Program-made: the position numbers and the translations under genes
Shown: positions 31,493-35,044 of the stretch, piece after piece
Position numbering within the stretch: the first letter of the stretch is position 1
Layout of the letters: the number at the start of each line of letters is the position of its first letter
The notes under the pieces: generated by a model
The model's database searches: none
Told to the model about the DNA's origin: nothing
The model's input: the letters and a program-made list of their open reading frames with translations, nothing else
IMG/VR virus record: IMGVR_UViG_3300037140_000143
Location: 1-41,409 of that record
Length of the DNA: 41,409 nt
Direction: 5' to 3' (one strand)
DNA from: a virus

Positions 31493-32410
31493 ATGAAGCG
31501 TTTTCTTCTCGCGGCCACGGCCGCGCTACTCCTCGCCGCCGTGTGTGCGGCCACGATCGCTGGCTGTGGGGGTCATTCGTCCCCTCTCCCTCCTCCGCGG
31601 GTGGCTCCCCAGCCGGCGACCACCACTGGCATCCCACCAGGGAGCATCGCGGTGCCGCCGGAATCCGCTCGCGTCCCGGAAGGCGCGAAACCCGAGGCAC
31701 CTCCCGTCTCGTTGTTCCTCGGCGTGTCGGAGAAACACGTCGACGCCGCGGGCCTGCACCTGATCGAGCAGTTCGAGGGCTACAGCCGCTGCGCGTACTG
31801 GGACCCTTATGGCGGGGTCTGGACGGTGGGTTTTGGGCAGACCCATGGGGCCTACCAAGGCTTCTGCTTCTCCGGGCGTGCGGCGGCCGAAGCCAACCTC
31901 AAGTCCTCGGTGGAGAGCGAATACGAGTGGGCGCTCCGCGCCTTGGACGTGACCTTGAACCAGAACCAGTGGGATGCCCTGTGCTCTTTTGTCTACAACC
32001 TCGGCGCCGGGATCTTCCAAGGCACCACGGTCGGCGCGGATCTGCGCGCCCGGGCGTTCTACGCCGCGTCACGACAGATGCTGGCCTACGACCATGCGGG
32101 TGGCCAGGTGCTCCCCGGTCTCGCCGTCCGGCGTGCGGATGAGGTGCGGCTGTTCCTCACCCCGGTCTCGAAGCCTAAGCCGCCCTCGCATGCGGAGATC
32201 CTCGCGCGGGAGCACCGGGAGCTCGACGCGCACTACCGGCTCCGCGAGCAACTGCGTGCCCTGCTCACAAGGCACGAGTGCCGCAAACCACCGTGGCCCC
32301 ACCCGAAGCCCAGCACGCGCGCCTACAAGGACGCCTGCCGGACCTGGCTTGTGCAGGGCGCAATCGAGAACCGCGAGATCCTGAAGTTTCATCGGATCGG
32401 GGTGTATTAG
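31493..32410 (+). CDS. Lipoprotein-type GH24 lysozyme (endolysin)
   Basis: The protein has 305 residues with AGGAGAC before the ATG. Residues 1-25 are a lipoprotein signal: a hydrophobic core (LLAATAALLLAAVCAAT) and lipobox IAGC with C25. Residues 28-75 are a Pro-rich linker. The enzyme domain starts at about 80: LIEQFEGYSRCAYWDPYGG, then WTVGFGQTHG, with the GH24 set E95, D104 and T111, as in T4-type lysozymes. LNQNQWDALCSFVYNLGAGI is the conserved later helix. Residues 210-305 are a basic helical tail. It cuts the glycan of peptidoglycan. Unusually it can leave the cell by the Sec pathway and be lipid-anchored. Confidence 0.85.
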   Translation: MKRFLLAATAALLLAAVCAATIAGCGGHSSPLPPPRVAPQPATTTGIPPGSIAVPPESARVPEGAKPEAPPVSLFLGVSEKHVDAAGLHLIEQFEGYSRCAYWDPYGGVWTVGFGQTHGAYQGFCFSGRAAAEANLKSSVESEYEWALRALDVTLNQNQWDALCSFVYNLGAGIFQGTTVGADLRARAFYAASRQMLAYDHAGGQVLPGLAVRRADEVRLFLTPVSKPKPPSHAEILAREHRELDAHYRLREQLRALLTRHECRKPPWPHPKPSTRAYKDACRTWLVQGAIENREILKFHRIGVY

Positions 32411-33013: not shown

Positions 33014-33397
33014 ATGTCTTCTGTCGCCTTGAAGCTGAAAGTCCAAGCAAGCTCGCTAAACGCAACGATCCTCGCGGTCGTGACCGCTGTTGGTGGTCTC
33101 ATCGTGGGCGTCGGCCTGATTTCCTCCTCACAGGAGGGCCTGCTTGTCGCTACGACAACGGCGGGTATCGCCGCCGTCGGCTTGGTCGCCAACGCGATTC
33201 ACACGGGCGCGATCGAACCGTCCGCGATCGTCACGTCTGTCGTGGCCGTCGTCACACAGGCCGTTGCCCTGCTCGTGTCGTTTCTGTTCATCACTGAAGC
33301 GGAAGCGGCGCACATTGTCGTGATCGTGACTGCGGTGGTGATCGCGGCGGCCCAGATCGCGCACGCGCTGATCTCGAAGACGGTGCCGGCGTCATGA
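33014..33397 (+). CDS. Four-helix membrane protein, holin candidate
   Basis: The protein has 127 residues. Four hydrophobic segments lie at about 17-39, 43-65, 70-97 and 99-121: ILAVVTAVGGLIVGVGLI, VATTTAGIAAVGLVANAI, IVTSVVAVVTQAVALLVSFL and HIVVIVTAVVIAAAQIAHAL. Charged residues are few and lie at the ends. Size and composition fit a phage holin that lets the lysozyme act or collapses the membrane. The gene lies 0.6 kb after the lysozyme. The papain-like protease gene starts in its stop codon. Confidence 0.65.
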   Translation: MSSVALKLKVQASSLNATILAVVTAVGGLIVGVGLISSSQEGLLVATTTAGIAAVGLVANAIHTGAIEPSAIVTSVVAVVTQAVALLVSFLFITEAEAAHIVVIVTAVVIAAAQIAHALISKTVPAS

Positions 33398-34239
33398 GCT
33401 ACCCCGTCTACGGCCGCTACCAGGTCGAGGAGGCTCCGTCAGCGCTCCTCGGCCTGCATGTGCACGACACCTCGACCCCGTTGAAGGAGGTCGATAACGA
33501 AACCCCGATCACGGTGCTCGACCAGTCTGATCTGGTCGAGCAGGGCATCCACACGTCCCGGTTCATTCCGGGCTGCAGGACGGACGCTACGGCTCTCGGG
33601 TCGTGCACGTTCAACACGGCGATCGAGGCGACTGCAAAGCTGCTGCCGGAGGCGGAGTTCTTGGCGTTTTGCAAGCGGCTGATCAGCTCGGACTATGCTG
33701 AACACCCGACGAGCTACGACCAGGCGCCGCAGCTCGAGCGCGCTGCGATAGCGGGCTATCACCTGTGTACTGATCAGACGGGGCAGCCGGCGGAAGAGTG
33801 GCCGCCCACGGACTGCGGCTCCACCGGGGCGTACGTGGTGCAGCTGCTACAGAAGCTCGGTGTTGTCCAGGGCGCGGTCATCGCGTCCGCCGGGGAAAGC
33901 CTGCTCTCGCTGATGCAGAAAGGGCTCGTGATGATGGGGAGTCCGTGGTTCTACAAGTGGGAGGAACCGGACGCGCAGGGCTTCATCGACGGGGATGGGT
34001 CGGTCGCGGCGATCGAAGAATCGATCCGCTCGGGTGTTGCCGGGGGACATGAGACGTCGCTGACGGCGATCGAGACGATCAAGTTCCTGCCTACAGGCCA
34101 TGTGGATCTGGTGAGCACGGTCCTCCGTGGGAGGAATCACTGGACGAAACCGTGGGGCGACCAGGGCTGCTACCGCATCCATGCCTCGACGCTCGTCGCG
34201 ATCAGTGGCGCCTGTGACTTCAGGCAGTTGACAGCATGA
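33394..34239 (+). CDS. Papain-like cysteine protease (C1 family fold)
   Basis: The protein has 281 residues, starting in ATGA. TALGSCTFNTAIEATAKLLP carries the papain nucleophile pattern G-S-C-T-x-N (C71). DCGSTGAYVVQLLQKLGVV follows. GGHETSLTAI gives the catalytic His (H219), and RGRNHWTKPWGDQGCYRI matches the papain N-[SH]-W-x-x-x-W-G-x-x-G-Y-x-R-I end (N248). The triad is therefore complete. There is no pro-peptide and no signal peptide, so the enzyme stays in the cell, leaves by the holin or is packed in the virion. It is coupled by ATGA to a phospholipase-D-family gene. The substrate is unknown. Confidence 0.8.
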   Translation: MSYPVYGRYQVEEAPSALLGLHVHDTSTPLKEVDNETPITVLDQSDLVEQGIHTSRFIPGCRTDATALGSCTFNTAIEATAKLLPEAEFLAFCKRLISSDYAEHPTSYDQAPQLERAAIAGYHLCTDQTGQPAEEWPPTDCGSTGAYVVQLLQKLGVVQGAVIASAGESLLSLMQKGLVMMGSPWFYKWEEPDAQGFIDGDGSVAAIEESIRSGVAGGHETSLTAIETIKFLPTGHVDLVSTVLRGRNHWTKPWGDQGCYRIHASTLVAISGACDFRQLTA

Positions 34240-34865
34240 GCACTCCGCAGCCGAGCCTCCAGACGTTCGACCTCGGCGACCTGGCGCAGTACGCGGCTGA
34301 GGGCGCGTTCTCGGCGAGCGACAGTCCGGACTCGCGGCTGTTTCTCGTTGGCCGCGATGACTGCCACGGGGTGCTGATGCACCTATACGAGCGGGTGTCG
34401 CTGTCGATCGAGTCCACGATGTTCGGTTTCGATGACGACCAGCTCAACGAAGTGATCTGGGGCAAGGTCGAAGACCCGAGCGTCGTGACGGAGTTCGTGC
34501 TCGACAAGTCGCAGTCCGGCGGCGTTCATGAGAAGAAGATTGTCGCCTCCGACGTCGCTAAGGACCCAGTGAAGTTCGCTGCCGACTTCGTGATCACGAC
34601 CTCGGAGACATCGCAGATCGTCCACACGAAGGGCGGCGTTCTCGACGGGATCGTGGGCTACGAGGGCTCAATGAACTGGAGTTCCTCCGGCGAGGGACAG
34701 GGGATCGGCCTGCATGGCGCTGCGAACGCCAAGGGCTTCAAGGCCCAGGAGAACACGCTGATGGTGTTCACGAACCCCGTGCAGTTGGCGAAGCTTGCCG
34801 CACGGATCAAGTACTCGGCGATCGTTGGTCGTCAGCGCCAGGAAGCCAAGGCCAAGGCGGCATGA
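34236..34865 (+). CDS. Phospholipase D-family protein with one HKD motif
   Basis: The protein has 209 residues. IVHTKGGVLDGIVGYEGSMN W shows H130-x-K132-x4-D137 and, a few residues later, G-S-x-N (144-147), the signature of the PLD superfamily. An earlier helix LMHLYERVSLSIESTMFGF is also typical, as is NTLMVFTNPVQLAKLAAR at the end. One motif per chain means an active dimer, as in the nuclease Nuc. Members cut phosphodiesters in lipids or DNA; no signal peptide is present, which favours DNA or an inner-membrane substrate. Start and end overlap its neighbours by ATGA, so it is translated with the papain-like protease. Confidence 0.8.
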   Translation: MSTPQPSLQTFDLGDLAQYAAEGAFSASDSPDSRLFLVGRDDCHGVLMHLYERVSLSIESTMFGFDDDQLNEVIWGKVEDPSVVTEFVLDKSQSGGVHEKKIVASDVAKDPVKFAADFVITTSETSQIVHTKGGVLDGIVGYEGSMNWSSSGEGQGIGLHGAANAKGFKAQENTLMVFTNPVQLAKLAARIKYSAIVGRQRQEAKAKAA

Positions 34866-35044
34866 TCGGCCGCGTCTTCATGGCTATCTGGTTCGGCGCG
34901 CTGCCCGTCCCTCTGGACTGGCTGCTCGTCGAAGCAGCCGAGAAGCATCAGTCGACCGGGAGCGTCATCATGCTCGGCTTCATTGGCGTGACGCTCACCG
35001 TGGGGCTGGTTTGGTTCGCTTCGTGGTTCTTGTTCTATGACTGA
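34862..35044 (+). CDS. Small two-helix membrane protein
   Basis: The protein has 60 residues. VFMAIWFGALPVPLDWLLVE and SVIMLGFIGVTLTVGLVWFA are two probable membrane helices joined by a short charged turn. It overlaps the PLD gene by ATGA. It could be a membrane partner of the protease-PLD pair or a small holin. No family is recognised. Confidence 0.55.
   Translation: MIGRVFMAIWFGALPVPLDWLLVEAAEKHQSTGSVIMLGFIGVTLTVGLVWFASWFLFYD

What the first reader, a model, noticed from the sequence alone, without database searches (positions are those of the whole stretch)
33394..34865. Papain-like protease translationally coupled to a phospholipase-D-family enzyme
Two enzyme genes overlap by ATGA just after the lysis genes: one with a full papain triad (C71, H219, N248), the other with a single HKD motif (H130, K132, D137). 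A two-helix membrane gene follows, also overlapping. Neither enzyme has a signal peptide. A protease plus phosphodiesterase pair with a membrane partner could be a lysis aid, a host-takeover module, or an anti-competitor effector system. I do not know a described phage system with this pair.
Basis: partly seen in the sequence, partly recalled or inferred. Interest (0 to 1): 0.7.

Follow-up and report, generated by a model that had tools for sequence, protein, structure and literature searches.

The report
Phage lysis cassette with protease-nuclease pair
Next to the lysis genes of an uncultured phage sit a papain-like protease and a small enzyme most like a bacterial DNA-cutting enzyme; both are recurring optional parts of lysis gene clusters in related phages, and whether they work together is not shown.

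Summary
Three ORFs overlap by ATGA at 33394-35044: a 281-aa papain-fold peptidase (C71/H219/N248 invariant in 57 phage relatives), a 209-aa single-HKD PLD-superfamily protein, and a 60-aa two-helix ORF. Both enzymes model confidently. (1) The "phospholipase D" is closest to the Nuc/NucT endonucleases and meets their signature, though the family is uniformly acidic. (2) The genes do co-occur: 17 of 143 non-redundant phage PLD loci have a papain on the same strand within 4 kb, with about 15 state changes on the PLD tree. (3) That rate is no higher than in GH25-endolysin-anchored control loci (10 of 56), so an exclusive pair is not shown; both look like optional lysis-cassette genes. (4) The 60-aa membrane ORF was found in no other phage here. 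(5) Two details go beyond the finding: window-type papains carry a conserved 20-21-residue insert between the oxyanion Gln motif and catalytic Cys, and the endolysin of this cassette type carries a lipobox kept across different catalytic domains. Best reading: a lysis cassette whose cytosolic peptidase and Nuc-like phosphodiesterase act once the holin opens the membrane. Function is inferred.

The parts
31493..32410 (+). putative lipoprotein endolysin, GH24 phage lysozyme (305 aa), lipobox Cys at residue 25, Pro-rich linker to the catalytic domain
   Evidence: Pfam Phage_lysozyme 2.2e-27; the G-C-G around the lipobox Cys is invariant in six endolysins with differing catalytic domains
33014..33397 (+). 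holin-like ORF, four hydrophobic segments; its stop overlaps the papain start
   Evidence: hydropathy; ATGA; 65% identical homologue at the same place in L028; small TM ORFs at this place in L008 and L029, and beside the PLD in L009 and L012
33394..34239 (+). papain-fold (C1-like) cysteine peptidase, C71/H219/N248, conserved insert between VLDQ44 and C71
   Evidence: AF2 pLDDT 91.0; xylellain 3ois Z 19.1 and papain/cathepsins Z about 15-16; profile hit 3ois 7e-19; phrog_16701 peptidase 4.5e-10; triad and insert
34236..34865 (+). single-HKD PLD-superfamily protein, Nuc/NucT type (H130, K132, D137, G144-S145-x-N147)
   Evidence: AF2 pLDDT 86.5; NucT 6ehi Z 16.3, Nuc 1byr Z 16.2; NCBIfam NucT models match up to 9 of 26 relatives; sister-clade profile hits 1byr 3.8e-10
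34862..35044 (+). 60-aa two-helix membrane ORF overlapping the PLD stop
   Evidence: no homologue in any fetched locus other than the same phage, so membership in the module is not supported

Best explanation
This is a lysis cassette of a phage with a contractile tail. The order is: endolysin with a lipobox (putatively exported and tethered outside the membrane), small ORFs, a multi-TM holin-like protein, then translationally coupled papain-fold peptidase and Nuc-type PLD. The last two have no export signal and would stay in the cytosol until the holin permeabilises the membrane. Then the peptidase would cut peptide bonds in the envelope (peptidoglycan cross-links, as a separate-gene analogue of the papain-family N-terminal domains of actinophage LysA, or envelope proteins), and the Nuc-like enzyme would cut a phosphodiester, most likely nucleic acid released from the dying cell. 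Shown: gene order, overlaps, folds, conserved catalytic residues, no signal peptides, recurrence in other phages' lysis loci. Inferred: timing, holin dependence, substrates, benefit to the phage.
For: Endolysin and holin-like ORF directly upstream. 46 of 143 non-redundant PLD loci have a GH24/GH25/DUF1906 endolysin domain within 4 kb, a lower bound as only three endolysin types were modelled; 22 of 72 papain loci do likewise. PLD loci with a papain have an endolysin domain nearby more often than those without (10/18 vs 37/128; Fisher p 0.03). Annotated actinophages Mufasa8 and Aleemily carry 'cysteine protease' in the lysis cassette. PLD nearest Nuc/NucT by profile and fold. NucT signature HxK(x)4D(x)6GSxN (PMC5714352) is met by the window, strictly by 114 and loosely by 145 of 146 relatives. 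Mycobacteriophage LysA N5 domain is papain-family (PMC3314691).
Against: No function was tested. All 146 PLD domains are acidic (median pI 5.2, net charge -3 to -14) whereas a plasmid Nuc relative has pI 9.0, which weakens the DNA reading. Most PLD loci have no recognised endolysin domain within 4 kb; L014 and L022 sit beside replication-type genes. No fusion of either enzyme with an endolysin domain was found. Peptidoglycan cleavage is not the usual activity of C1 peptidases; the LysA analogy is inference.
Confidence: 0.5

Rival explanations
1. Two unrelated accessory (cargo-like) genes that merely share a favoured place next to the lysis genes; no joint function.
For: Papain rate near PLD loci with an endolysin (10/47) equals that in GH25-anchored control loci (10/56), Fisher p 0.80; PLD near papain 7/72 vs 2/56, p 0.30. 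Gene order and spacing vary. Papain presence is scattered on the PLD tree. In L006 an HNH gene sits where the PLD sits in the window.
Against: Direct overlap or adjacency recurs (8 of 17 within 100 b), including L008, where the PLD is 86% identical to the window's but the papain only 25%, so different papains have come to lie beside near-identical PLDs. The control was seeded from papain and PLD loci, so its papain rate may be inflated.
Confidence: 0.3
2. The PLD protein is a true phospholipase or cardiolipin hydrolase that attacks the cytoplasmic membrane at lysis, with the papain clearing envelope proteins.
For: Lysis context; acidic protein; Zucchini/PLD6-type proteins, named cardiolipin hydrolase in PDB, are also close in fold (Z 14-15).
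Against: Nearest by profile and by fold are the Nuc and NucT endonucleases; the two-HKD Streptomyces phospholipases score lower (Z about 11-12) and the window protein has one HKD motif only; no hydrophobic N-terminal segment.
Confidence: 0.13
3. A host-takeover or anti-competitor pair acting inside the cell, a cytosolic protease and nuclease against host or rival-phage components.
For: No signal peptides; relatives of the PLD resemble DrmC of DISARM; some PLD loci lie near replication genes.
Against: Lysis-cassette placement in the window and in many relatives; no immunity-like partner seen; the PLD is absent from 395 of 396 actinobacterial genomes sampled, so it is not a common bacterial weapon.
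Confidence: 0.07

Closest known systems
Nuc (pKM101) and NucT (Helicobacter pylori) single-HKD endonucleases
   Same: Fold (Z 16), single HxK(x)4D(x)6GSxN motif, size of the catalytic domain; homodimer class
   Different: 12-14% identity in the structural alignment; no signal peptide here (the plasmid Nuc relative in L331 appears to have one); acidic instead of basic; extra conserved SQxxGVHE motif; lies in a phage lysis region
C1 papain family, nearest solved structure xylellain (3ois)
   Same: Fold (Z 19.1), Cys-His-Asn triad in order, NxW...WG...G motif around the Asn
   Different: No signal peptide; 20-21-residue insert between the oxyanion Gln motif and the catalytic Cys in the window-type clade; phage lysis context
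'cysteine protease' or unnamed homologous genes of actinophages (Arthrobacter phage Mufasa8, Gordonia phage Aleemily, Streptomyces phage ZL12)
   Same: Homologous peptidase (29-33% identity); lysis-cassette position in Mufasa8 and Aleemily
   Different: No PLD neighbour in these phages
Papain-family N5 domain of mycobacteriophage LysA; split LysA genes of Gordonia phages
   Same: Papain-superfamily or other single-activity peptidase working beside a glycosidase or amidase of the lysis system (PMC3314691, PMC9671378)
   Different: C39-like rather than C1; homology to the window peptidase not tested

Membership tests
C1 papain-like cysteine peptidases | Cys-His-Asn triad in this order with GSC and N-x-W context | tested here: met
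   Invariant C71, H219, N248 in 57 relatives
C1 papain-like cysteine peptidases | Papain fold | tested here: met
   AF2 pLDDT 91; xylellain Z 19.1, rmsd 2.8 over 210 residues
C1 papain-like cysteine peptidases | Oxyanion-hole Gln six residues before the Cys | tested here: inconclusive
   Ala at -6; a conserved DQ lies 27 residues before C71, separated by a clade-specific insert; 31 of 57 relatives have Gln at -6; model coordinates not available to measure geometry
C1 papain-like cysteine peptidases | Proteolytic activity, E-64 sensitive | not testable with these tools
   needs purified protein
Nuc/NucT-type single-HKD PLD nucleases | HxK(x)4D(x)6GSxN signature | tested here: met
   H130, K132, D137, G144, S145, N147; strict in 114, relaxed in 145 of 146 relatives; signature from PMC5714352
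Nuc/NucT-type single-HKD PLD nucleases | Fold of the Nuc/NucT catalytic domain | tested here: met
   NucT Z 16.3 and Nuc Z 16.2 are the top two of 985 chains; FAM83B and 7e0m are within about 1 Z
Nuc/NucT-type single-HKD PLD nucleases | Score above a curated family cut-off | tested here: not met
   Window protein scores 16.7 bits against the PLDc_2 cut-off of 27 and has no NucT model match itself; relatives match NucT models down to 1.4e-11. So it is described as Nuc-like, not filed as a NucT
Nuc/NucT-type single-HKD PLD nucleases | Positively charged groove across the dimer | tested here: inconclusive
   Whole domain is acidic in all 146 members; groove charge not measured
Nuc/NucT-type single-HKD PLD nucleases | Nuclease activity as a homodimer | not testable with these tools
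   needs purified protein
Phospholipase D proper (two HKD motifs in one chain) | Two HKD motifs | tested here: not met
   One HxK(x)4D motif; the other conserved His (H98 in GVHEKK) lacks the HxK(x)4D spacing and is HER in the sister clade

The most novel reading that the evidence does not exclude
A protease-triggered lysis switch: the endolysin is exported early as a lipoprotein and held on the outer face of the membrane by its lipid anchor and Pro-rich linker, and the cytosolic papain, let out by the holin, cuts the linker and frees it (a proteolytic counterpart of the SAR endolysin/releasin logic of other phages), while the Nuc-type enzyme clears released nucleic acid. Not excluded: the lipobox Cys is kept in six endolysins with differing catalytic domains, all of them in cassettes with a papain.
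Probability: 0.1. Interest if true: 0.75.

Novelty: new variant of a known kind. Interest (0 to 1): 0.42.

Why it matters
It shows that lysis regions of uncultured actinophage-like viruses carry further enzymes beyond holin and endolysin, with a Nuc-like PLD family that had no match in 50,697 annotated phage records and is rare in sampled actinobacterial genomes. If the peptidase proves to act on the endolysin tether or on cross-links, it would add a regulatory or enzymatic step to phage lysis of Gram-positive hosts; if the PLD is a nuclease, it would be a lysate-clearing enzyme of practical use. As it stands the pair is a set of testable candidates, not a demonstrated system.

Tried and rejected
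PLD protein against annotated phages: no match for the window's or for a sister (L073). Plasmid search gave Nuc-type plasmid genes at about 30% identity. A fusion of papain with PLD, or of either with an endolysin domain, was sought and not found. Exclusive pairing was tested against a GH25-anchored control and not supported; a first, broader GH25 alignment was too diverse to scan with. A link with permuted papain-fold (C92/NlpC-like) proteins looked enriched near PLD (23/143 vs 1/56, p 0.003), but that model was built by iteration from three weak seeds (Pfam 0.01, 8.5e-4 and no match) and the locus sets differ in phage type, so it is only a lead. The 60-aa membrane ORF was rejected as a conserved partner. 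Anti-phage defence membership: relatives resemble DrmC, the window protein itself has no PADLOC hit. Literature searches found no paper describing a papain plus PLD lysis pair in the open library and none using the phrase 'lipoprotein endolysin'; subscription journals are mostly not covered.

Full report
Observation. On the + strand the window holds ORFs 33394-34239 (281 aa), 34236-34865 (209 aa) and 34862-35044 (60 aa), each overlapping the next by ATGA; the upstream holin-like ORF 33014-33397 also overlaps the papain start by ATGA. All have coding-like GC by codon position. The window is a 41,409-base virus record, and a 67-kb IMG/VR contig holds the identical cassette. Portal, head, tail-sheath and baseplate genes upstream mark a phage with a contractile tail.

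The papain. Pfam did not recognise it at its cut-off, but PHROG 16701 'peptidase' matches at 4.5e-10, a profile of four relatives hits xylellain at 7e-19 with cathepsins and papains below that, and a confident AF2 model (pLDDT 91) aligns with xylellain at Z 19.1 and with papain-family enzymes at Z 15-16. C, H and N are invariant in 57 aligned sequences. In the stretch before the Cys the relatives fall into two sets: 31 have the canonical pattern with Gln at -6 (mostly DQGxLGSC), while 26, the window included, have a pattern like VLDQ(E/S)DLxxQGIxTSxxxPG...DALGSC, that is an insert of 20-21 residues between the Gln motif and the Cys. Position -6 is then Ala or Val in nearly all of these. Whether the displaced Gln still forms the oxyanion hole could not be measured, since model coordinates are not exposed.

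The PLD protein. The window protein alone is only a weak PLDc_2 match, but 23 of 26 relatives match PLDc_2 and up to nine match NCBIfam NucT models. The AF2 model (pLDDT 86.5) is nearest NucT (Z 16.3) and Nuc (Z 16.2), followed by FAM83, Zucchini and PLD3/4; the two-motif Streptomyces phospholipases score about 11-12. A profile of the sister clade hits Nuc (1byr) at 3.8e-10 and NucT at 7.5e-7 and nothing else below 0.03. The signature given for NucT, HxK(x)4D(x)6GSxN (PMC5714352), is met. D137 is Val in one sub-clade. There is an additional conserved SQxxG(V/I)HE motif (127 of 146). Against a simple DNase reading, all 146 members are acidic, median pI 5.2, whereas a plasmid Nuc relative has pI 9.0. 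I therefore call it a Nuc-type single-HKD phosphodiesterase, nuclease more likely than lipase, substrate not shown.

Neighbours elsewhere. Scans of IMG/VR gave 143 non-redundant phage clusters with this PLD and 72 with this papain. Seventeen PLD clusters have a papain on the same strand within 4 kb, eight of them within 100 bases; seven papain clusters have a PLD. On a PLD tree of 146 tips the 18 papain-near tips need 15 changes of state, so the association was made or lost many times. In L008 the PLD is 86% identical to the window's while the adjacent papain is 25% identical. 46 of 143 PLD clusters have a GH25, GH24 or DUF1906 endolysin domain within 4 kb.

The control. GH25-anchored loci (56 clusters after removing the seed contigs) have a papain within 4 kb in 10 cases, a PLD in 2 and a C92-like protein in 1. 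Papain near PLD loci that have an endolysin is 10 of 47, the same rate (p 0.80); PLD near papain is 7 of 72 against 2 of 56 (p 0.30). Caveats: the GH25 seeds came from papain and PLD loci, contigs are often fragments, and only the best 80 loci per scan were kept. The conservative conclusion is that both genes are optional members of lysis regions and that a dedicated pair is possible but not shown. PLD genes also occur away from lysis genes (L014 and L022 beside replication-type genes) and, rarely, in bacterial genomes (a Pseudonocardiaceae genome and a Bacteroidetes bin; 1 of 396 actinobacterial genomes, that one being the genome the search was centred on).

The cassette. The window's endolysin (31493-32410, GH24) begins with a Sec-type signal ending in a lipobox. 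Aligned endolysins of L006, L008, L016, L028 and L029 share the invariant G-C-G around that Cys and parts of the C-terminus, although the catalytic domains are GH24 (window, L016, L029), GH25-like by weak match (L006, L008) or unrecognised (L028). By a simple pattern filter, lipobox ORFs of 190-450 aa lie upstream in 6 of 88 papain clusters and 2 of 127 PLD-only clusters. A lipid-tethered endolysin would need either to act in place or to be released; the cytosolic papain is a candidate releaser, a speculation recorded as the novel case. The Mu releasin (PMC9239132) is a precedent for a separate release factor for a membrane-tethered endolysin, not for proteolysis; its authors considered a protease model and argued against it.

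Mechanism, with what is shown and what is inferred. Shown: folds, conserved catalytic residues, gene overlaps, placement, lack of export signals. Inferred: co-expression with lysis genes, release through holin lesions, peptidase action on the envelope, phosphodiesterase action on released nucleic acid. Papain-family peptidase domains are known inside LysA of mycobacteriophages (PMC3314691) and Gordonia phages split LysA into single-activity genes (PMC9671378); separate 'cysteine protease' genes are annotated in the lysis cassettes of Mufasa8 and Aleemily. The window peptidase is homologous to those annotated genes (29% identity), and is not shown to be homologous to the LysA domains.

Verdict. 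Observation confirmed; interpretation partly supported. The enzymes are a new variant of known kinds in a known kind of place. Interest is moderate because of the rare Nuc-like family, the papain insert and the lipobox endolysins, and is limited by the absence of any functional test and by the negative pairing control.

Noticed in passing
window 31493-32410; L006 4700-5638, L008 3192-4127, L016 3962-4807, L028 4298-5161, L029 4565-5392: Endolysins with a lipobox and Pro-rich linker; the Cys is invariant although the catalytic domains differ (GH24, GH25-like, unrecognised). Possible lipid-tethered endolysins.
   Followed up: partly
window 33394-34239, residues 44-71, and 25 relatives (e.g. L028, L029, L031, L036): Conserved 20-21-residue insert between the oxyanion-hole Gln motif and the catalytic Cys of the papain, defining one of two clades.
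   Followed up: partly
L012 4687-5208, L018 5965-6450, L021 6582-7079, L019 6536-7075: YiiX/NlpC-P60-like (permuted papain fold) ORFs beside the PLD gene in loci without a C1 papain; 23 of 143 PLD clusters against 1 of 56 controls.
   Followed up: partly
L006 6840-7459: An HNH endonuclease gene stands where the PLD stands in the window, and a second stretch like the last 29 codons of the papain overlaps and follows its end, as if the HNH gene had arrived with a duplication.
   Followed up: no
L010 5079-5804: In place of the papain a 241-aa ORF with SHELLEMAVDP, possibly a metallopeptidase; no Pfam or PHROG match.
   Followed up: no
PLD proteins of L014, L015, L019, L021, L022, L024: HKD Asp replaced by Val (HTKGGVLVGQ or similar), with one extra residue before the GSMN; activity may be altered.
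   Followed up: no
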